A stretch of 9,563 nt of DNA from an uncultured Beijerinckiaceae bacterium. GTDB taxonomy: Bacteria; Pseudomonadota; Alphaproteobacteria; Rhizobiales; Beijerinckiaceae. Positions 1 through 9,358 of the stretch are shown here, piece by piece. Each line of letters opens with the position of its first letter. Position 1 is the first letter of the stretch. The translations under genes and the position numbers were made by a program. The stretch spans positions 1 through 9,563 of the forward strand of contig CALMGA010000328.1 of the NCBI GenBank assembly GCA_937863205.1, read 5' to 3'. The notes beneath the pieces were generated by a model. The model saw only the letters and a program-made list of their open reading frames with translations. It was not told the origin of the DNA and did no database searches.

Positions 1-51
1 ACGCGCGAATCAGCGATGGATCCAACCGGTTCCAATCAACTTGCCAAAGTA
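1..51. other. Unidentified sequence that interrupts the hybrid kinase gene
   Basis: Reading leftwards on the minus strand, HPt-domain similarity runs to a GAG GCA codon pair (an Arg-His-Glu-Ala motif) ending near base 53. It then stops exactly where the phosphorylatable histidine of an HPt domain is expected. The remaining bases to the left edge do not continue the HPt helix in any minus-strand frame, and the plus-strand frames contain early stops. The sharp end of similarity suggests a junction with foreign DNA such as an insertion sequence end, but no family or inverted repeat was recognised. The boundary is good to a few bases only. Confidence 0.35.
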
Positions 52-190
52 GTGCCTCGTGACGCAAACGCGCGGGATCAAGCGTATCGTTCGTGAAGCG
101 CGCGAGAAGATCGCGTCGAAGCCTCGCCGTGAGCTGTAAAGCCGTCTCGTGTCCGACAAGCTCGACGAGGAAGCCGTACTCGTCGCGATC
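52..190 (-). pseudogene. HPt (histidine phosphotransfer) domain fragment, 3' part of the hybrid kinase
   Basis: The minus-strand frame with codons starting at 190, 187 and so on encodes a helix pair typical of HPt domains in alphaproteobacterial hybrid kinases: a Leu-Val-Glu-Leu-Val-Gly-His-Glu-Thr-Ala stretch, then Ala-Arg-Leu-Arg-Arg-Asp-Leu-Leu-Ala-Arg-Phe, then Leu-Arg-His-Glu-Ala. In the family the next residue is the phosphorylated His, followed by Leu-Val-Ser-x-Ala-Gly. Here the match stops at that point. The frame has no start codon of its own and differs from the REC frame just upstream, so it is not a separate gene. The best reading is the remains of a REC-HPt kinase tail joined to the REC by a deletion. 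Without its histidine the piece cannot relay phosphate. The family assignment is from memory of the HPt pattern. Confidence 0.5.
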
Positions 191-3100
191 GGCAGGCGCG
201 CCGCCGGACCCGGCAGTTTGCGGATCAGGCGCGTCGCCGCCATGCCGTCCATGCCGGGCATCTGCACGTCCATCAGCACGAGATCGTAGGTCTTGTCCTG
301 AACCGCTCGAACCGCGGCAGCGCCGTCCCCGACCACCTCGACCGCGTGACCGAGATCGCCCAGCACGGCGCGGGCCAGCTCCCGGTTGATCTCGATGTCG
401 TCGACGAGCAGCAAGCGGCCGCGACGGCGAGCGGGCTGAGCGGCGACGGCAGGGGCCGCCTCCGCGGATGATCCCCGCATCAGGGTGACGGTGAACCAGA
501 AGGTCGCGCCGCAGCCTTTTTCGGAGAAGACCCCGATTTCGCCGCCCATCAGTTCGACCAACCGCTTCGAAATGACGAGCCCCAATCCGGTTCCCCCGAA
601 ATCACGGCTGATCGGACCGTCGGCTTGGCTGAAGCGCTGGAACAGTCGGTGCTGCTTGTCCCCGGCGATGCCGATCCCCGTATCGATCACGGAGAAGCGA
701 AGCCGCTCGCCCGTGGACCCGGAACCGTCGTGGCGCAGGATCAACGAAACCGATCCCTGCTTGGTGAACTTGATCGCGTTGTTGAGGAGGTTGAGGAGGA
801 TCTGACGAAGGCGGACCTCGTCGCCCAGCAGCAGCTCCGGAATGGATCCGTCGATTTGCGAGCTCATCTGTAGCGACTTGGAGATGGCGGCGCCCCGCGT
901 GATCGACAGGCAATCCTCGATGAGGACGGACGGCGCGAAGGACACCGGCTCCAGTTCCACGGCGCCCGCCTCAACCTTGGAGAAATCCAGGATGTCGTTC
1001 ACCAAAGTGAGCAGGGCCGACCCGGACGAGCGCACGATGTCGGCGTACTTCCGCAACTCGGGCGCAAGCGCACCCGATTGGGCCAGCAGTTCGCCGAAGC
1101 CGATGACGGCATTGAGTGGCGTGCGGATCTCGTGGCTCATCGCGGCGAGGAAGTCGGTCTTGGCGTGACTTGCCTGCTCGGCGGCCGCCTGCGCCAGTTC
1201 GGCCGACTGCTTCGCGATCTTAAGCTCCAGTGTGCGCGCTTGGCGTTCGGACACGTCGCGAAGGCAGGAAACGATCGAGGTCGGCCGCCCGCTCGCCTCA
1301 TCGAGAACCAGCTTCATGCCGGCTTCGATCCACACCCGGCGGCCGGAGCGGTGCCGTAGACGGTAGGTCGCGACCGCGCCCTCCGTGCCATGCTCGCCGG
1401 CAACGAGCCTGCGCACGAGGCCTGCGATCAGTGGCACATCGTCGGGATGCATGGGCGCATGGGGCGAGCTACCGAGAAGGTCCTCGGGGTCGTAGCCGAG
1501 CAGCCCGCGGCAGGCCGGGGAGACGTATTCCCGTTCCAACGACAGGTCGAGGCGCACCACCACGTCGCTCATGTTTTCGGCGAGCAGCCTGTAGCGAGCT
1601 TCGGCCGCGCGAGCCTGGGCGTCGGCCTTCCGGCGCGCCGTCATGTCGGTGAACGTCTGAACGGCACCTCCGGTCGGCAGGCATACGCGGCGCAGTTCGA
1701 GCACCGTCCCGTTGGGTCGCGTCCATTCGTGCGTACCGGCGCTGCCGCCCTGCAATGGCGCTCCCGGGCAATCGATCCCTGAATCCCCGCTGGCTCGCAC
1801 GCCGCGTCCTCCCAAATCCCGTATTCGCCATGGCGCTGCTGAAAGGCGGCAACCTCGCTCAACTGCGGCTGCGAGGCCATCAGCGCGGCCGGCAGGCCGA
1901 GCAGGTCGAGGGCGCGCCGGTTGAAGACCCGCACGCGCCCGTCGGGGTCGGACATGACGAGACCCTGGTCCATGCTGTCGAGCGTCACCTTGAGCATCGC
2001 GGCGTTGTCGCGCAGCAGGGCCTCCGCGCGACGCAACTCCGTCACGTCCATCATGACGCCGAACAGCGACCGTCGGCCGTTCGCCTCCTCCTGAAGGAAG
2101 CCCCGCAGCACGACGCTGCGCACCTCGCCATCGGGGCGCACGATGCGGGCGGTGAAATCGAGATAGCCTCTGATGTCCAGGGCTTGCCGCAGCTGGCGCT
2201 CGACCAGCGTGCGGTCTTCGGGATGGCAAGCCTCGATGCCGTCGGCCAGGGTCGGCCGGTGACCGGCCTTGTCCAGCCCGTGGATGCGGTAGACCTCATC
2301 CGACCAGAACACGCTTTCCTCGGGGTACCCGACGCGCCAATGGCCGACGTGCGCCACCCCTTCCGCGACGCGCAGCATACGGTTGGCTTCGCGGGCGTTG
2401 GCTTCCGCCGTGCGGAAGTGCGTGATGTCGCGAGAGCTTCGCAGCACCCGAACGATGCGCGACGTTTCGTCGGCGAGCGGAACGCAGGTGATCTCGAGAA
2501 CGGTCCGCTCGCCGGCGACATCGACCCGGTCGTCCTCGGTCCTGACGATCTCGCCGATGGCGGCGGCGCGCTTGACGTCCTCAAGGTCGTGAAGGGCGTT
2601 GGGCACCGCGCCCTCAGCCGCATTGCATATTTCAACCACCGGCTCGCCATCGCTCGGGATCCGATAAACGAGCTGTTGTTCGGGAAGCTGGTCGAAAAGA
2701 CCGCGGAACAAGCGCTCAGCCGCCTTGAGGTCCGCTTCGCGGGCAGCCAGGCGCGCCCCTGCTCCATCGAGCGCGTCGCCGACGAGTTTGAGCTCGCCGG
2801 CGATGTTGGGAAGGCTCAAACGGGCGTCGAACCCACCCTCGCCGAGCTGCACCGCCGCTTCGACCAGGCGCCGGATCCAGCGCAGCAGGAACGCCTCGGC
2901 CGCGACCCAAGCGAGAACGCCCGCAGCGACGGAAAGGACGCCGAGTTGAAGGAGTTCCCGTCGAAGCTCGGCGTCGATGGCGGCCAGCACAACCGTCCTG
3001 GGCCGCCCCACGAACAGCTTGGCGTTCGATCCCGGTACCGTTGCGAATGCCCCGATGCGAACGATGCCATCGGCGAAGCTGCCTTCGAACGCGCCCTCCA

Positions 3101-3851
3101 GGCCGCCCAGTCCATTCATGCCCGTCGGCTTGCCCGCGAGAAAGGATCCGATCCATTGGGCGGCATCCTTTGATCCGGCGAGCACCGTGCCGTGGCGGTC
3201 GGTGAGCACGACGAGCGCATCCGGGTTTCGCTTGTTCGCCTCGACCAGCCCGGCGAGCCATTTAAGATCGATCGTCACCGCCGCCACCGACGAGATCCTG
3301 CCCTGCTCGTCCCGGATCGCGCGCGCCAGAGTCATGGCGGGGTGACGATCCTTGCGCGTCACGAGGAAATCGCTGATCGCCACCTGGTCCGCGGCGACGG
3401 CCTCGCGGAAGTAGGGCCGGTCGGCGACGTTGACGCCGGTTCCATCCCCGTCGCTCCAGCACCGCACTTCGCCGTCGAGGCGCGCCATGAAGATCCGGGC
3501 CGCCCAAGGCGTGCCGGCCGCGATGCGGTGCAACAAAGCCGGACACCCGGCGGCGTTCGGGTCCGCGTCGCCCCCGAGTTCCGCGACGAGCGTTAGCAGC
3601 GTCACGGCTTGGTCGATCAGGCCGCGCTGCTCGACGGCGCCCTGGCGCACCGCGGCGAGCGCATCGCGCTTGGCCTGGGCGACGTAGCCGTCGCGCGCCG
3701 CGAGGATGGCGTAGGCGCGCAGTCCGGCGACGGGGAACAGCAGCACCAGCATCACCGCGATCAACTGTCCCCTGACGCCGAGAAGCCGCGTTCCGCCAAC
3801 GCGGGCCGCGCGCCGCGGGACCGATGAAGACTGCGTCGCCGCCGCGCTCAT
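52..3851 (-). pseudogene. Membrane hybrid sensor histidine kinase (Cache-HAMP-PAS x4-HisKA-HATPase-REC), broken
   Basis: A sensor that would autophosphorylate a histidine and pass the phosphate to its own receiver domain. Part one is open from the ATG at 3851: a membrane span at residues 28-50, a periplasmic Cache-like sensor to about 300, a second span at 301-325, HAMP, and PAS domains at about 380-480, 490-605 and from 612. Similarity leaves this frame between about 1800 and 1735, although the frame stays open to a stop at 1641. It resumes in another frame: the end of the third PAS, a fourth PAS, then HisKA with Ser-His-Glu-Ile-Arg-Thr-Pro-Leu-Asn (His codon 1134-1132). The HATPase follows, with an Asn box, Asp-Thr-Gly-Ile-Gly and Gly-Thr-Gly-Leu-Gly-Leu. 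The REC has Val-Asp-Asp and a phosphoacceptor Asp at 270-268 (Met-Asp-Val-Gln-Met-Pro-Gly). The REC breaks off near 190, before its conserved Lys; this frame runs on to a stop at 10. The start overlaps the previous kinase's stop (ATGA). A shift of one lost base (or two gained) explains the PAS break. It is a pseudogene, or a sequencing artefact at the PAS site. Confidence 0.85.
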
Positions 3852-4984
3852 GCGGCAGCCCTTCTCGCCGGCTGGACGTTCGGCATGCCGATCACGAAGC
3901 GAGCGCCTTCAGCCTGTGTTTCATCCAGCGCCAAGGTCCAACCGTGCAGGTCGGCGATCTTGCGGCAGAGCGCGAGGCCGAGACCCACGCCGTCCGGGCC
4001 GTTGCGACGGGGCACGCGCACGAAGCTGCCGAAGATGGCCTGCGCGAACGAGGGCGGCACACCGACGCCGTTGTCGCTCACGGCGACCTCGCAGGCGGCC
4101 GCTCGCTGGGCGGCGGTGATCGTGATGCGGGGAACGCGGCCTGGCGAGCGGTAGCGCAGGCTGTTGCCGATAAGATTCTGGAACAGGTTGACGACCAGCG
4201 CGGGTGCCGCGGTGATCTCGGGAAGAATGCCGACCTCGATGACGGCGCCGCAGTCCGAAACGTCGGCAGACAGGTTGCGGCACGCTTCGGCGACCGCGTC
4301 GGCAAGGACGAAGGGCTCGAGATGGATCTCCCGCGAGCTGAGGCGGGCATGGTCGAGCAGGCCCGAGATCATCCGCGTCAGCCGAGCGGCACATCCCTCG
4401 ATGGTTTCGATGCAATCGATCGCCTGCGCGGGGTCGTTGGCGAGCGTGCCCCTCAGGATCGCCGCGAACGAGGCGATCTGCCGAAGCGGCGCTTGCAGAT
4501 CATGCGCGGCGATGGACGTGAACTCACGTAGGTCCTGGTTCTTGCGCTCGATCTCGCGCGAAGCGGCCAGGAGTTTTTCCTCCAGGAGTCGCTGCTCGCG
4601 TTTCTGCATGAGGAACCAGTGGTCGATCGGACGATCGACCTGGTCGACGGTCGTCAGCACCGCATGCTCGCCCACGGCCGCTTCCCAGGAAATGGTGATG
4701 TGGCAGCGCCGCGACGGGATCTGACCAGCAAGACGCACGGCGGGCAGCACGAGGGGTTCGCCCGCCGCGACCCGCAGCTCCTCGAAGTCCTCGTCGAGGC
4801 CGGAAAGCACGGGGCTGTCGAAGCAGGAGTGCCCCACCTCGGGGAGCCAGCCGCTCAGTGCGCCTTGCCGCGAGCGCACGACTCCATCGGGCCCGATCGT
4901 CGCGACGCCGGCGAGGCCAGCCTTCATGAAATGCGAGAACGCACCTGCGCCGATCGGCGGGAGTGGGTCACGGCAGGCGGTCAT
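3848..4984 (-). CDS. Soluble PAS-containing sensor histidine kinase
   Basis: An intact 378-residue kinase. Residues about 15-115 form a PAS-like input domain with no membrane span. A short coiled linker (126-155) leads to the HisKA helix, Ala-Ala-His-Asp-Leu-Gln-Ala-Pro-Leu-Arg, with the phosphorylated residue at His161. The HATPase has an Asn box at 270-274 (Asn-Leu-Ile-Gly-Asn), Asp-Asn-Gly-Val-Gly at 304-308 and Gly-Val-Gly-Leu-Gly-Leu-Ala at 332-338, so it should be active. It has no receiver, so its phosphate probably goes to a REC domain elsewhere in the operon; that pairing is inferred. The open frame extends 29 codons upstream, but those lie in the GTPase gene. The ATG at 4984 is preferred because GGAG sits 8 bases ahead and the GTPase stop is 1 base away. 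The stop overlaps the start of the hybrid kinase (ATGA), suggesting coupled translation. Confidence 0.9.
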   Translation of the reverse strand: MTACRDPLPPIGAGAFSHFMKAGLAGVATIGPDGVVRSRQGALSGWLPEVGHSCFDSPVLSGLDEDFEELRVAAGEPLVLPAVRLAGQIPSRRCHITISWEAAVGEHAVLTTVDQVDRPIDHWFLMQKREQRLLEEKLLAASREIERKNQDLREFTSIAAHDLQAPLRQIASFAAILRGTLANDPAQAIDCIETIEGCAARLTRMISGLLDHARLSSREIHLEPFVLADAVAEACRNLSADVSDCGAVIEVGILPEITAAPALVVNLFQNLIGNSLRYRSPGRVPRITITAAQRAAACEVAVSDNGVGVPPSFAQAIFGSFVRVPRRNGPDGVGLGLALCRKIADLHGWTLALDETQAEGARFVIGMPNVQPARRAAA

Positions 4985-4985
4985 A

Positions 4986-5484
4986 TCAAGGGCTCCGACG
5001 CTCGATGGTCGCGGCGAGGGCGATGAAGAGGTCGCGCACCCCGGCGCCGGTGCGCGCGCTGGTGAAGGCAATGGCGTCGGCCGCCTGCAGGCCCGGCGGT
5101 TCGGGCCCGCGCTCGCCCGCTCCGAGAAGGTCGCACTTGTTGATCACGGCCGTGCAAGGTCGTCCGGGAAGAGCATCCCGGAAGCCCTCGACCAGAACCG
5201 CCATCTGCTCGATCGATGCCGGGCGCGTCGCCCACGATCAGCGCGCCGCTCGCGCCCTTGATGTAGACCGTTCGGAAGATCGCCATCCCGAAGTCACCGT
5301 CCGTGTCCCACAAGGTGAGCTGCGTCGGCTTGGTCTTTCCCGGCAGCAGAACGGTTGTCGTGTAGATGTCGACGCCGATCGTCGCCTTGTAGCTCGTCTC
5401 GAAACGCTCGAAGGCGAGGCGGTTGGCAAGCGACGTCTTGCCGACGCCGATCGCACCGAGGATCATGATCTTGCGCGCGGCCAT
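4986..5484 (-). pseudogene. Rab/Ras-like small GTPase, frame broken once
   Basis: A small GTP-binding switch of the prokaryotic Ras-superfamily type, about 165 residues once the frame is restored. The start is the ATG at 5484 (Met-Ala-Ala-Arg-Lys-Ile-Met). The P-loop is Gly-Ala-Ile-Gly-Val-Gly-Lys-Thr-Ser at residues 10-18. The G2 Thr is residue 35, in Lys-Ala-Thr-Ile-Gly-Val-Asp, which is very Rab-like. G3 is Trp-Asp-Thr-Asp-Gly-Asp at 59-64, where Rab proteins have Asp-Thr-Ala-Gly-Gln. After Val-Gly-Asp-Ala (near residue 87) the protein continues in another frame with Ser-Ile-Glu-Gln-Met-Ala-Val-Leu, then G4 Asn-Lys-Cys-Asp and a G5-like Thr-Ser-Ala-Arg. The shift lies at about 5219-5228, in a GC-rich run, and fits one extra base or two missing. 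It is in frame with the upstream OmpA gene, with no stop between. The stop at 4986 is 1 base from the downstream kinase start. It may be truncated in the cell at the G4 half, or intact if the shift is an error. Confidence 0.85.
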
Positions 5485-7257
5485 TCCCGAACATTCGCCG
5501 GCATAAGCGAGTTCGAAGACGACCCGACGGTTGGCCGCCGCGGCGACGGCATCGCTGATCGGCGAGGGGGCGCGCGTCGAGACGACCGCGAGGCGCGAAG
5601 CGGGCAGTCCGAGGTGCCGCAGGACGTTGGCGACCCGTTCAGCCCGATCGCGCGCGGCCTCGGTGTTGCCCTTGGGCGTGCCCGCGCCGTCCCCGAAGCC
5701 GACGATGCGCAACCTCGCGCCGTCCGTCGCCGCCAGCAGGCGGGCAAGCCTGTCGAGGTCGCGCTCGCCGCCTCGGGATCGCGGAAGTCCGCTCCGGCCG
5801 CGAAGAAAACGGACGTTTGGCGGGCTGCCTCGTCGAGGCGGCGCATCGGCGTGTCGAGACGGGCGCCCAGCGCCGCCAGTTCTCCCCGCAGCCCATCGAG
5901 ACCGGATCGAAGAGCCGAAGACGCGGCTTGCTGCCGACGATCAAGCTCGGACAGGACGCGGCCGGCCGCCTGCTCCGCTTGCGTGCGATCGACCATCTCC
6001 GTCTTGAGCTGCGCCTGCAAGGCGGAAAGGCGGTCTGCGAGGCTTTCCGCGCGCTCCACGTCGGCGCGCAGTGCCCGGTCCAACGCCTGGGCCTGTGTCG
6101 TTTCCGAGAGCACGGCGAGGCGCGCCTCCACTCTCGCAGCCGGAAAGGCGCGGGCGAGTTCCGAGGCGAGCGCCTGCGACGCGGCACGGTCGGCCAGGAC
6201 GCCGGTCGCATGGATCACGCCGGCGCCATGATCGAACGCGAGTTGGACGGGATAAAGCGCAAGCCCCGGCATCCGCCCGATGGCTGCAAGGGTGCGATCG
6301 TCGCGCGCCTGTTCGCGGGCGTGAAGAACGGATCGGACGGCGAGGGTCGTCGCGCCCAAGGCCAGAACCGCCGGAATCGCCACGGGCGGCGATACGCGCT
6401 TTTTGCCGGACGCGACGGGCGCGGTCCGCTCGACGATGCCGGCATGGAGCGAGGCGATCGCATCGGCGAAGACGGCCTCGCCCGCCGTGACGCCGGGAAG
6501 GAACGACAGGAATGCCGCGTCGACTGCCGCCGACAGCGCGGCGGGGATCGCACCGCTTCCGAAGACCGCCGCCACGATGAAACTCGGCGATGCGCGCAGC
6601 AGCACGGCCTGCCCGCCGAGGTCGATCTGGCGCAGGTCGCCACCGCTCTCGCTCAGGGCATGTCGAGCAAACTCGACGATGGCTGACACGAGGCCGCCGA
6701 GAAGGTTAAGGCTTCCATCGGCGGCGTCACGCGTTTCGCCCGGTCCGGTGGCGGCGAGGACGGCACCGCTCGTCCGCTCGATGAGAATGAGGCGTTCGAG
6801 CCGGGCTCGACCAGCTTCGGCCAGAAATCAGTTCCCCGATCGGCCGGCGGGTGACCATCGCCTTGATCCGCAGCTGGACGCGCTTGGGCGAGAGCGCGGC
6901 TTCCAGCTTGCCGTTGATGTCCTCCGACAGCTGCTTGAACATCGCGCCGATGCCGGCGGCGACCATGCGGCCGGCGATGGGGTAGAGCGTTTCGACCATC
7001 ATGTCGCGCGATTGCTCGATCTCGCGGCGGATAGCCGAAATGACGAGCGGCGCCATTGCCGCAGCAAGGTCGCGATGGCTTTCGATCTCGGCGACCTTCA
7101 GAGCCACGACCAGGCTGTCGGCGACCGAGCGAGGAAACCGGGCCTCCGACCCGACCCTCAGCTCCAGCTGGGCGACGTCGCCGCGCAAGGCTTCGAGCGC
7201 CTGCCTGTCCTCGACGAGAAGCAGGCGCCTGAGCTGACCAAGGTCGGTGTCGAGCAT
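5485..7257 (-). pseudogene. OmpA-family membrane protein with cytoplasmic helical and longin-like domains, frame broken twice
   Basis: A large envelope protein, about 590 residues if repaired. From the ATG at 7257 the first ~143 residues are helical and match the N-terminal region I recall from OmpA proteins next to bacterial Rab-like GTPases (Leu-Ser-x-Lys-Arg, then Thr-Arg-Arg-Pro-Ile-Gly-Glu-Leu-Ile). Similarity jumps frame at about 6825 and continues Leu-Ala-Glu-Ala-Gly-Arg-Ala-Arg-Leu, then Ile-Leu-Ile-Glu-Arg-Thr-Ser-Gly-Ala-Val-Leu. This alpha/beta region to about residue 255 resembles a longin/roadblock-type fold. One membrane span follows (Pro-Pro-Val-Ala-Ile-Pro-Ala-Val-Leu-Ala, bases about 6392-6327), then a BON-like stretch and a ~100-residue coiled coil. 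A second shift at about 5758-5772 leads into the OmpA C-terminal domain (Gly-Phe-Gly-Asp-Gly-Ala-Gly-Thr, ending Asn-Arg-Arg-Val-Val-Phe-Glu-Leu). The first shift fits one extra T, the second one lost base. There is no signal peptide, so the N-terminus is probably cytoplasmic and the C-terminus periplasmic. No stop separates it from the GTPase, so its end is nominal. Confidence 0.8.
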
Positions 7258-7267
7258 CGCGAACGGC

Positions 7268-7627
7268 TCAGAAACTCTTCTGTTCGGCGCCGCGGTCACG
7301 GATCTCGCCCATCGCCGTGATCTGACGGCCCATGTCCACGATGCTGCCGCCGATCGCGCGGACCGAATTGCCGTGCTCCTGCCGCAGCGCGCGCCCCAGC
7401 GCGTCGATCGTCGCCTGCATTTCTTCCAAGCGCTTCAGCATCCGCTGTTCGAGCGCATGCACCTCGTCCTGCGCGGTTTCGAGGCGACGATCATGTCGAC
7501 GAAGCGCATCGCCGTAGAGGAGTTCGCGCACCTGCTCCAAGGTGTCGGGCACAGGTCCGCCGGTCGCGGGGACGGGTGCGGCCTCGTCTCCGAGACTGGG
7601 CGTGAGCAGCTTCACATGTCCGGCCAT
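7268..7627 (-). CDS. Small coiled-coil protein of the GTPase/OmpA operon
   Basis: A 119-residue protein with no membrane span or signal peptide. Residues 1-28 are Pro- and Gly-rich and look disordered. Residues about 29-85 form a charged heptad-rich helix (Leu-Glu-Gln-Val-Arg-Glu-Leu-Leu-Tyr-Gly, then Val-His-Ala-Leu-Glu-Gln-Arg-Met). Residues 88-119 are a short second segment. The open frame reaches 7681, but the ATG at 7627 has GAGGA nine bases upstream and opens with a plausible sequence, so it is preferred. The stop is 10 bases before the OmpA-protein start. The Leu-Arg-x-Leu-Leu helix resembles the first helix of that protein, so the two may interact or share an ancestor. Function is otherwise unknown; an adaptor or scaffold role is a guess. 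Confidence 0.75.
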   Translation of the reverse strand: MAGHVKLLTPSLGDEAAPVPATGGPVPDTLEQVRELLYGDALRRHDRRLETAQDEVHALEQRMLKRLEEMQATIDALGRALRQEHGNSVRAIGGSIVDMGRQITAMGEIRDRGAEQKSF

Positions 7628-7691
7628 GATGTCACGTCCTCGCGGCGATGTAACGGGTCCCACCGGGCGCCGCCGATCCACGGTGATCCGT

Positions 7692-8711
7692 TCATTGAAG
7701 ATTCGCCGGCGCTCGACGGGGCAGCCGCAACTGGACTGCGAAGCCCGGACCTTGGCGACAGCTCGTTACGGCGGACATCGAGCCGTCGAGGTCCGCGAGC
7801 AGTTCCTCGAAGAGCGGACCATAACCGACGGGATCGGGCTGTCCGGCGAGGCGACCATCGAGCTGGATGCAGACCCCCTCCGCCTCGTCGATCATCGAAA
7901 CCTCGATCAGGCTGTCGCCGGCGCTTTGCGCGCTGGCACGGCAAACGAACTCGTGAACGAGGAAGAGCAGCGGCACCGGATGGCTGATCGCGGCAGGCAA
8001 TCCATCGATGTCGGAGGTCACCAGCGTCTGCCCCCGGCTCGTCAGGGTCGCGGCGGCGATCTCGAAGGCGTGGGCGATGACCGTCTCAAGGCTCGCAAAG
8101 GGGAGCGCGTGCCCGCCTTGCTCGGGCTGGCTCGCGACCAGCCACTCGAAAAGCGCGAAGCGGGCTGTTTCCGACATGTTGGCCAAGCCTGCGAGCCTGT
8201 CGCGGGCTTGCGCCCTCCGCTCGAAAGCTTCGTAGGCTTGCGCCTGAGACAAACGCCCGAGGACCGACGTTTCGAGCAGGTCGCGGAGGCTCGCAAGGTG
8301 GCCGGCGCTGCAACTCCTCCGCCCGGTCGCTCGCTCGGCGAGCGCTTGGAGGATTGCGTTGCGCAGCGAGACTGCGTCGAGGCGCTCCTTGCCGATGAAA
8401 CGCCTGGCCCCGGCAAGCCGGCACAGGTCGCCGATATCGGGCGTGCTCAGGCTGGTGAGCACCACGGCTGGCAGTTGCAGGGGTGCCACGTCCAGATCGG
8501 CGAGCAGGCGCAGGCTGGTTTCGCATCCCAGCCAGAAATCGAGGATGCAGATATCGAAGGTGCACTCTGCGAGGAGCTGCCGGCCGGCCTCCGCCGACAC
8601 CACGCGCGTGAGCACCAGCTTCGGCTCCGCCATCGCGGCTGCATGGAAGCCGATAAGTTTGGCATCGACGTCGTCGTCTTCGACCAGAAGGACGCGCACC
8701 ACGTCCGGCAC
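7692..8711 (-). CDS. Response regulator: REC domain with degenerate HATPase-like output
   Basis: An intact 339-residue protein, first gene of the operon. Residues 5-118 are a receiver: acidic pocket at Glu11-Asp12-Asp13-Asp14, phosphoacceptor Asp58 (Ile-Leu-Asp-Phe-Trp), Thr86 (Val-Val-Leu-Thr-Ser) and Lys108 (Phe-Ile-Gly-Lys). All key residues are present, so it should accept phosphate. Residues about 130-200 are helical, without a His-box. Residues about 205-330 follow the outline of a histidine-kinase ATPase domain: Leu-Val-His-Glu-Phe-Val-Cys-Arg-Ala where the Asn box should be, and Gly-Pro-Gly-Phe-Ala-Val-Gln-Leu-Arg-Leu at the end. The Asn and the glycine-rich boxes are missing, so it probably does not bind ATP and may act as a docking domain. 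It lacks any DNA-binding domain. The start is GTG at 8711 with GAGG four bases ahead; no ATG or GTG lies in frame nearby upstream. A 64-base gap follows before the coiled-coil gene. Confidence 0.85.
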   Translation of the reverse strand: MPDVVRVLLVEDDDVDAKLIGFHAAAMAEPKLVLTRVVSAEAGRQLLAECTFDICILDFWLGCETSLRLLADLDVAPLQLPAVVLTSLSTPDIGDLCRLAGARRFIGKERLDAVSLRNAILQALAERATGRRSCSAGHLASLRDLLETSVLGRLSQAQAYEAFERRAQARDRLAGLANMSETARFALFEWLVASQPEQGGHALPFASLETVIAHAFEIAAATLTSRGQTLVTSDIDGLPAAISHPVPLLFLVHEFVCRASAQSAGDSLIEVSMIDEAEGVCIQLDGRLAGQPDPVGYGPLFEELLADLDGSMSAVTSCRQGPGFAVQLRLPRRAPANLQ

Positions 8712-8740: not shown

Positions 8741-8869
8741 ATGACGCTGCAAATCCTCGTCGGCAAGGTGCGGCGCAAGGACTTCGCCGCAGCGGTCAAG
8801 TGGGCTGCCGAACCCGTGAACCACGCCGCCCTCATCGCCGAATGGAGCAGGCTCAATGAGCACGACTGA
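8741..8869 (+). CDS. Short DUF4160-like protein, C-terminal part only
   Basis: A 42-residue reading frame beginning Met-Thr-Leu-Gln-Ile-Leu-Val-Gly-Lys-Val and ending in a Trp-Ser-Arg-Leu-Asn-Glu helix. It resembles the last third of DUF4160 proteins, where a Thr-Leu-Glu-x-Leu-x-Gly strand is followed by an Arg-Arg helix and a final Ala-x-Leu-x-x-x-Trp helix. DUF4160 proteins are usually about 80-100 residues and their N-terminal part, with a conserved His-Pro-Pro-His-x-His-like motif, is absent. It overlaps the DUF2442 gene by 14 bases, the usual neighbour of this family. The N-terminal part was probably lost when the divergent operon was joined here, leaving a start that happens to have a good ribosome binding site. 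Whether the short product is made or works is unknown. Confidence 0.55.
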   Translation: MTLQILVGKVRRKDFAAAVKWAAEPVNHAALIAEWSRLNEHD

Positions 8870-9170
8870 CGACTTCATCACAGTCGGGCGGCCCTTCCCG
8901 CAGATCGAAGCCGTGGCGCCGCCGATGGGGTTCGTGATCTTGGCGAAGTGGAAGGGCGGCAAGCAGGTCGCCGTCGACCTCGGCCCGACGCTGCACCGCT
9001 TCAAGGTCTACGCGCCGCTCAGGACCGACCGCACGCTCTTCGAAACGGTCCACGTCGCGAACGGCTCGACGATCGCCTGGGGCAACGACGACGCGATCGA
9101 CATGCACGTCTCGGAAATCGAGCGCCTCGCCGGAGAGGTGATGGAAGCCGCCGACTCAGGGCCTGGATGA
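8856..9170 (+). CDS. DUF2442 domain protein
   Basis: A 104-residue protein matching the DUF2442 pattern: a strand region Phe-Val-Ile-Leu-Ala-Lys-Trp-Lys-Gly-Gly, a Val-Asp-Leu-Gly-Pro segment, Tyr-Ala-Pro-Leu-Arg, Leu-Phe-Glu-Thr-Val-His-Val, and the signature Ile-Ala-Trp-Gly-Asn-Asp-Asp-Ala-Ile-Asp. The family is small and soluble and commonly lies next to DUF4160, as here; the pair has been suspected of toxin-antitoxin-like or regulatory roles, but I know of no established biochemical function. The ATG lies inside the preceding gene, which suggests coupled translation. The stop overlaps the ATG of the next gene (ATGA). In many relatives the DUF2442 domain is followed in the same protein by a helix-turn-helix, so the split here may be a frameshift. 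Confidence 0.85.
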   Translation: MSTTDDFITVGRPFPQIEAVAPPMGFVILAKWKGGKQVAVDLGPTLHRFKVYAPLRTDRTLFETVHVANGSTIAWGNDDAIDMHVSEIERLAGEVMEAADSGPG

Positions 9171-9358
9171 AGGATCTCGGCTTGACGCTCGACAGCGCCG
9201 CGGCCTTGCTCGGGATGAGCCGGCGGACCATCGCCTACTATGCCGGCGGGCAGGAAATCCCCCGCTACGTCGCGCTCGCCTGCGCTCATCTCGCGAACAT
9301 GCGAAACGGCAGGGTCGGTTCTGCGAAAGACCGTAGCGCATCAGTGCTGCATGGGTAG
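9167..9358 (+). CDS. Small helix-turn-helix protein, possibly the C-terminal half of a DUF2442-HTH protein
   Basis: A 63-residue frame beginning Met-Lys-Asp-Leu-Gly-Leu-Thr-Leu-Asp-Ser-Ala-Ala. It contains a Xre-type helix-turn-helix: Ala-Ala-Ala-Leu-Leu-Gly-Met-Ser-Arg-Arg-Thr-Ile-Ala-Tyr-Tyr (residues 11-25), followed by Glu-Ile-Pro-Arg-Tyr-Val-Ala-Leu-Ala-Cys. This is the usual C-terminal DNA-binding part of DUF2442-HTH fusions. The codons just before its ATG, in the same frame, read Leu-Arg-Ala-Trp, which also fits the fused form (Arg-x-Trp-Met). So it is either a separate gene coupled by ATGA, or the second half of one protein broken by a single shift near 9155-9165. The last 15 or so residues are not conserved in appearance. 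It probably represses its own cluster; that is an inference. Confidence 0.7.
   Translation: MKDLGLTLDSAAALLGMSRRTIAYYAGGQEIPRYVALACAHLANMRNGRVGSAKDRSASVLHG

What the first reader, a model, noticed from the sequence alone, without database searches (positions are those of the whole stretch)
3848..8711. Operon linking a Rab-like GTPase, an OmpA envelope protein and a phosphorelay
In one direction and with tight spacing lie a REC protein, a coiled-coil protein, an OmpA protein with a cytoplasmic N-terminal region, a Rab-like GTPase, and two histidine kinases. OmpA plus Rab-like GTPase is a neighbourhood I recall from several bacterial groups. Its coupling to a REC protein and two kinases suggests that envelope state is passed through a GTPase switch to a phosphorelay. 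None of the genes has a DNA-binding output, so the target may be a protein complex or motility or polarity machinery. The functional link is inferred from position.
Basis: partly seen in the sequence, partly recalled or inferred. Interest (0 to 1): 0.8.

Follow-up and report, generated by a model that had tools for sequence, protein, structure and literature searches.

The report
Rab-like GTPase with membrane longin partner
A bacterial operon pairs a Rab-like molecular switch with a wall-anchored membrane protein whose inner domain is predicted to have the fold of proteins that control Rab switches in our own cells, and with a kinase that probably reads the switch; the gene set was noticed in 2014 in other bacteria, but the fold of the membrane protein and the way kinase and regulator are matched look new.

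Summary
The observation largely holds: REC, coiled-coil, OmpA, Rab-like GTPase and kinase genes lie in one direction. In this record OmpA and GTPase are broken by frame shifts; relatives are intact. The second kinase (HK1) lies outside the coordinates and is not conserved. Coiled-coil, OmpA and GTPase genes stand together in 58 of 58 well-covered related loci; in 398 Pseudomonadota genomes OmpA domain and GTPase co-occur in 48, each alone in 2. This is the 'Group 1 Rup' neighbourhood of PMC4316618 (2014), as an alphaproteobacterial variant. New here: (1) the OmpA protein's 'domain of unknown function' is predicted to be a longin/roadblock fold, nearest to TRAPP, Mon1-Ccz1 and MglB, while Robl_LC7 genes are missing from 10 of 10 genomes; (2) the kinase starts with a dedicated PAS-fold domain, one copy per genome in 37 of 39; (3) 44 of 44 HisKA_3 kinases have a NarL-type regulator nearby, 16 HisKA-like ones show none in the sequence held. 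Proposed flow: wall state, longin domain, GTPase, PAS kinase, regulator. No binding or biochemistry was tested; direction is inferred.

The parts
7692..8711 (-). REC protein (339 aa): receiver domain plus about 200 aa C-terminal part without a Pfam match
   Evidence: ORF; Response_reg 25.5 bits, below the curated cut-off; residues 4-128 match REC-only genes at the same place in L001-L003, 46-48% identity; one relative covers 93% at 37% (P0124)
7268..7627 (-). coiled-coil protein (119 aa)
   Evidence: ORF; homologues near the GTPase in 74 of 80 loci (only 27-41 bits in the four Rhodoblastus loci L038, L045, L062, L069)
5486..7257 (-). OmpA fusion protein: helical plus longin/roadblock-like N-terminal region, membrane helix, periplasmic part, OmpA domain; in three frames in this record (shifts near 6830 and near 5770)
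   Evidence: frames; OmpA Pfam on the 5712 piece; relatives L001-L003 unbroken; fold of the N region modelled on L002
6400..6810 (-). stretch of the OmpA gene that encodes the longin/roadblock-like domain (approximate)
   Evidence: by likeness to L002 residues 154-297
4986..5484 (-). Rab-like GTPase; G3 motif WDTDGDFG lacks the catalytic Gln; in two frames in this record (shift near 5220)
   Evidence: Roc/Ras Pfam on the N half; alignment A1; Rab matches of the family profile
3848..4984 (-). HK2: PAS-fold N-terminal domain (about 1-115) + HisKA with acceptor His + HATPase_c
10..3851 (-). HK1: dCache/PAS/HisKA/HATPase/REC hybrid kinase; start overlaps the HK2 stop by 4 bases; frame break between about 1650 and 1850; not part of the conserved set
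   Evidence: no match of its first 736 aa in 80 loci

Best explanation
It is an alphaproteobacterial variant of the Group 1 Rup signalling system. The OmpA protein is anchored to the cell wall and crosses the inner membrane; in the cytoplasm it carries a longin/roadblock-like domain that, I propose, is the docking platform and nucleotide-state regulator (GAP or GEF) of the neighbouring Rab-like GTPase, which lacks the usual catalytic Gln. The nucleotide state of the GTPase is then read by the PAS-fold N-terminal domain of the dedicated kinase HK2, which passes the signal to a partner regulator: the REC protein in the window and Methylobacterium, a NarL-type DNA-binding regulator in most other loci. 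Shown: gene linkage, co-occurrence, residue patterns. Predicted: the two folds (AlphaFold2 models). Inferred: membrane topology, wall binding, direct binding between the parts, GAP versus GEF, direction of flow, stimulus, and the role of the coiled-coil protein.
Against: No binding was tested and no complex was predicted (the tool takes one chain). Longin domains also serve without GTPases, so fold alone shows no function. Pfam does not see the domain in L001 or L011 and a profile search of PDB sequences gave only chance hits, so the claim rests on one predicted structure of a relative, not of the window's own broken gene; TM-score over the whole 309-residue query is low (0.32 for the best row). 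The invariant Gln of the 2014 hypothesis is not conserved in the alphaproteobacterial kinase domain. The kinase domain is not near the GTPase gene in 5 of 37 genomes. L063 and L068 have a GTPase without OmpA or coiled-coil gene despite 2.3 and 5.1 kb upstream. hhalign did not show the alpha PAS-fold domain to be homologous to the N domain of distant outputs (probability 1%, E 0.053).
Confidence: 0.45

Rival explanations
1. The flow is reversed, as posited for actinobacterial conservons: the PAS kinase senses a cytoplasmic signal and controls the GTPase, and the GTPase through the longin domain changes the OmpA protein's grip on the wall (GTPase as output).
For: Conservons were posited to end in the GTPase. 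Of the 16 HisKA-like kinases 8 have another residue at the acceptor-His place, 7 have His, 1 is unclear, and none shows a NarL regulator in the sequence held, which fits a use without phosphotransfer.
Against: 44 of 44 HisKA_3 kinases have a NarL-type regulator near, and other loci put cyclases or GGDEF-EAL enzymes after the GTPase: outputs that make sense downstream of it. The window's HK2 keeps its His.
Confidence: 0.2
2. The longin-like domain is an effector or plain scaffold that gathers GTPase, coiled coil and kinase at wall-attached sites; the GAP or GEF is an unknown protein.
For: Longin and roadblock dimers are described as platforms (passages). In alignment A2 no Arg or Gln of the domain (residue 154 on) is conserved at 90% or more.
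Against: Nearest folds are from GEF/GAP complexes; no other Robl_LC7 candidate in 10 genomes; MglB acts on MglA as GAP and GEF (abstract of PMC11016934).
Confidence: 0.25
3. In the window itself the locus is a decaying copy and no longer works.
For: Frame shifts in OmpA (two), GTPase (one) and HK1 (at least one) within 9.6 kb.
Against: Coding likeness continues on both sides of the breaks, and REC, coiled-coil and HK2 genes are unbroken; breaks spread over several genes fit read errors in an unpolished contig. No whole genome is held, so this could not be tested.
Confidence: 0.15

Closest known systems
Group 1 Rup GTPase neighbourhood (Wuichet and Sogaard-Andersen 2014, PMC4316618; sections 16-18 read, further passages)
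   Same: Ras-superfamily GTPase without the G3 Gln; coiled-coil gene; unknown domain + membrane helix + OmpA gene; signalling enzyme with a conserved N-terminal region
   Different: Alphaproteobacteria are listed for Rup as a whole but not for Group 1 in that text; here the unknown domain is predicted as longin/roadblock; the kinase N domain is PAS-like and lacks an invariant Gln; NarL or REC partner genes; cyclase outputs in other loci
MglA/MglB of Myxococcus and Thermus
   Same: small GTPase with a roadblock-fold partner, linked to two-component proteins
   Different: partner domain is inside a membrane OmpA protein, not a separate Robl_LC7 gene; the GTPase keeps the G3 Asp that MglA lacks and matches Rabs
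Eukaryotic Rab with longin GEFs (TRAPP Trs23/Bet5, Mon1-Ccz1)
   Same: Rab-type GTPase and longin-type partner fold
   Different: bacterial, tied to an OmpA domain and a kinase; GEF activity untested
Actinobacterial conservons (CvnA-D)
   Same: histidine kinase + roadblock fold + GTPase in one gene cluster
   Different: the roadblock-like fold is not a separate CvnB gene; OmpA protein present; kinase starts with a PAS-fold domain; a counterpart of CvnC was not searched for

Membership tests
Group 1 Rup system | small Ras-superfamily GTPase of the Rup/Rab side, not MglA | tested here: met
   family profile matches Rabs best; G3 Asp present
Group 1 Rup system | G3 motif lacks the catalytic Gln | tested here: met
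   W59 to G66 (WDTDGDFG) invariant in the 19 rows of A1; in the 18 further Pseudomonadota GTPases printed whole, WDxxG is followed by E, I, R, A or N, not Q. The 80 loci were found partly by this motif and are no independent proof
Group 1 Rup system | adjacent coiled-coil gene | tested here: met
   74 of 80 loci
Group 1 Rup system | adjacent unknown-domain + TM + OmpA gene | tested here: met
   74 of 80 loci; 48/2/2/346 in 398 genomes
Group 1 Rup system | output enzyme whose N-terminal region has an invariant Gln | tested here: not met
   kinase present, but the invariant columns of 34 aligned N domains are only G62 and R129; a Gln is 15 of 15 in distant outputs
Group 1 Rup system | falls in the Group 1 clade of the 2014 tree | not tested
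   the paper's sequences were not fetched
Longin/roadblock superfamily | beta-beta-alpha-beta-beta-beta-alpha fold | tested here: met
   predicted model of a relative only
Longin/roadblock superfamily | recognised by sequence profile (PF03259 or PDB longin chains) | tested here: not met
MglA/MglB system | separate MglB-type Robl_LC7 gene | tested here: not met
   0 of 10 genomes
PAS domain (HK2 N-terminus) | PAS fold | tested here: met

The most novel reading that the evidence does not exclude
Bacteria have a complete Rab-longin pair: the wall-anchored OmpA longin protein is a true catalytic GAP or GEF for the Rup GTPase, turning wall or envelope state into a GTP switch, and a PAS-fold domain is a new type of GTPase effector that lets the same switch drive kinases, cyclases or c-di-GMP enzymes. 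The pair could also be a bacterial sister, or even a source, of the eukaryotic Rab/longin pairing, which is thought to be archaeal.
Probability: 0.3. Interest if true: 0.85.

Novelty: new variant of a known kind. Interest (0 to 1): 0.62.

Why it matters
The regulator of Group 1 Rup GTPases, close bacterial kin of eukaryotic Ras/Rab switches, was called unknown in 2014. A longin/roadblock-like domain in the gene next door is a concrete candidate that can be tested in vitro at once. It would tie the cell wall to a Rab-like switch and to interchangeable outputs, and bears on where the Rab-longin partnership came from.

Tried and rejected
Rejected: 'all six genes conserved' (HK1 and the window's REC family are not); a separate MglB-type gene (none in 10 genomes); the invariant-Gln-in-trans idea for this clade; a natural OmpA-GTPase fusion in the window (no stop stands between them in the ORF 4981-5712, but in L001 and L002 they are two genes 4 bases apart, and the record has other frame breaks).

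Tried without result: profile search of PDB sequences with the OmpA N region (5 chance hits, best E 0.064); hhalign of the alpha PAS domain against distant output N domains, probability 1%, E 0.053; likeness of the coiled-coil protein to the start of the OmpA protein, hhalign probability 69.9% against 27.0% for an unrelated coiled coil of the same protein and at most 1.2% in 20 column shuffles, left open. Literature: longin + roadblock + OmpA + bacteria (0 papers), Rab-like GTPase + OmpA + bacteria (0), Rab family GTPase + OmpA + Alphaproteobacteria (0), Rab family GTPase + Methylobacterium (0), Rup GTPases (only the 2014 paper). None of the listed papers describes this domain as far as titles, abstract starts and the passages read (PMC4316618, PMC7159879, PMC10933270, PMC9090330) show. 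Most subscription journals are not in the library.

Limits of counts: the 398-genome searches scored only the best 5, 9 or 10 candidates per genome, so misses are possible. In one search, 128 genomes had a match at E up to 1e-3; I kept the 50 with best E up to 1.7e-26, a cut set after seeing that the next best genome stands at 1.3e-11. Related loci are not independent (many Bradyrhizobium and Mesorhizobium), so the Fisher p values printed overstate. One search kept the best 80 of 101 loci. One search printed 33 of 37 near; L062 was removed because one search shows no such domain in that locus, leaving 32. One search's GTPase query was translated in a wrong frame and its column is void; GTPase positions come. 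One search covers 60 called kinases: L070 and L072 were dropped (their clustered kinase is a Cache kinase), L022, whose called kinase is cut short, was set to HisKA_3 by hand, and kinases not called as genes (for example L049, L052) are not in it. Of its 16 HisKA-like loci only 7 (L001, L002, L003, L026, L061, L073, L080) have 8 kb on both sides of the GTPase, so a missing NarL regulator is proven less firmly than its presence. Of the 45 regulators counted in the 58 well-covered loci two (L070, L072) are weak (28-29 bits). In L070 and L072 the OmpA and coiled-coil genes are on the other strand.
Full report
What is in the window. On the minus strand, in order: a REC protein (8711-7692), a coiled-coil protein (7627-7268), an OmpA fusion protein (7257 to about 5490), a Rab-like GTPase (5484-4986), a kinase HK2 (4984-3848) and a hybrid kinase HK1 (3851 to near the left edge). 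Spacing is 64 bases, 10 bases, not definable between OmpA and GTPase (no stop between them in this record), 1 base, and a 4-base overlap. The OmpA gene lies in three frames, the GTPase in two, HK1 in at least two. Coding likeness runs on through the breaks, so read errors are the likelier cause, but no whole genome is held for the window and I could not test it. The fold of the OmpA region was therefore modelled on a relative.

Conservation. One scan of species genomes with the GTPase profile found 101 relatives; the best 80 loci were kept, named ones mostly Bradyrhizobium, Mesorhizobium, Methylobacterium, Methylocystis, Rhodoblastus and other Hyphomicrobiales. Within 8 kb of the GTPase, and above 20 bits, the OmpA N region is found in 74 of 80, the coiled-coil gene in 74, the HK2 N-terminal domain in 62 and a NarL-type regulator in 52, two of these only at 28-29 bits. 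Of the 6 loci without OmpA, 4 end within 1 kb upstream; L063 and L068 have none despite 2.3 and 5.1 kb. In the 58 loci with at least 7 kb upstream and 4 kb downstream the counts are 58, 58, 50 and 45. In a sample of 398 Pseudomonadota genomes 50 have the OmpA domain and 50 a GTPase at E up to 1.7e-26 (128 at E up to 1e-3, the weaker ones at 1.3e-11 and above, most inside longer open frames); 48 have both, 2 only OmpA, 2 only GTPase, 346 neither, and the genes lie within 3 kb in 46 of 48, the other two being on different contigs. The order REC, coiled coil, OmpA, GTPase, HK2 is the same in 3 of 3 Methylobacterium loci. HK1 has no counterpart in the 80 loci by its first 736 aa.

What the GTPase is. 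The best solved relatives of its family profile are eukaryotic Rabs. The G3 motif WDTDGDFG is invariant among 19 aligned sequences and has Asp where Ras-type enzymes have the catalytic Gln, so slow turnover without a helper is expected (inference).

Mechanism proposed. A wall-anchored membrane protein presents a longin/roadblock-like platform to a Rab-like GTPase that cannot easily hydrolyse GTP alone; wall or envelope state changes the platform, hence the nucleotide state; the PAS-fold domain of the dedicated signalling enzyme reads it. Shown: linkage, co-occurrence, residue patterns. Predicted: folds. Inferred: topology, binding, catalytic role, direction, stimulus. The reverse direction (kinase drives GTPase) and a pure scaffold role are the main rivals.

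What is known. PMC4316618 (sections 16-18 read; passages) described Group 1 Rup GTPases with a coiled-coil gene, an unknown domain + TM + OmpA gene and a GGDEF-EAL or kinase gene, and called the GAP unknown. It lists Group 1 in Bacteroidetes, Chloroflexi, Cyanobacteria and gamma-Proteobacteria. It suggests an invariant Gln in the output N domain as the Gln given in trans. I see a 15 of 15 Gln in distant outputs but none invariant in the alphaproteobacterial kinases, where G62 and R129 are invariant. Because that feature fails, I file the window as a variant of the system, not a plain member. PMC10933270 (passages) states that roadblock/longin dimers bind small GTPases in a conserved orientation and are thought to be of archaeal origin. 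In the searches named under Tried and rejected I found no paper that puts a longin or roadblock domain in the Rup-linked OmpA protein.

Verdict. The added value is a testable identity for the missing GTPase regulator and a clean kinase/regulator pairing behind one shared PAS-fold input domain.

Noticed in passing
window about 6830, 5770, 5220 and 1850-1640 (minus strand): Frame breaks in the OmpA gene (two), the GTPase gene and HK1; intact copies of OmpA and GTPase exist in relatives. Read errors or decay not decided.
   Followed up: partly
window 4981-5712: No stop between the OmpA end and the GTPase start in this record; in L001 and L002 they are two genes 4 bases apart.
   Followed up: partly
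L112, L114-L117, L121, L127, L128 (downstream of the GTPase): The output enzyme has a class III nucleotide cyclase domain (8 of 10 typed), a type not named in the sections of the 2014 paper that I read.
   Followed up: yes
L007, L010, L012, L016, L026, L042, L071, L073 kinases: HisKA-like kinases with Asn, Asp, Glu or Lys at the acceptor-His place, yet with HATPase_c: possible pseudokinases.
   Followed up: partly
start of coiled-coil and OmpA proteins, e.g. L010, L044, L077: Both proteins begin with a similar (Q/K)(V/L)(R/K)xLLF stretch; hhalign 69.9% against 27.0% for a coiled-coil control. Perhaps a shared docking site.
   Followed up: partly
G024:C26:164702-165190, G032:C1:593070-593549: Second Rup-like GTPase copies away from the OmpA gene.
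   Followed up: no
window 7692-8320: C-terminal 200 aa of the REC protein has no Pfam match; by eye it resembles a degenerate kinase ATPase domain. One relative covers nearly the whole protein (P0124).
   Followed up: partly
window 8856-9358 (plus strand): Divergent overlapping pair: DUF2442-like protein (21.4 bits, below the cut-off) and a helix-turn-helix protein, possibly a toxin-antitoxin type module (function recalled).
   Followed up: no
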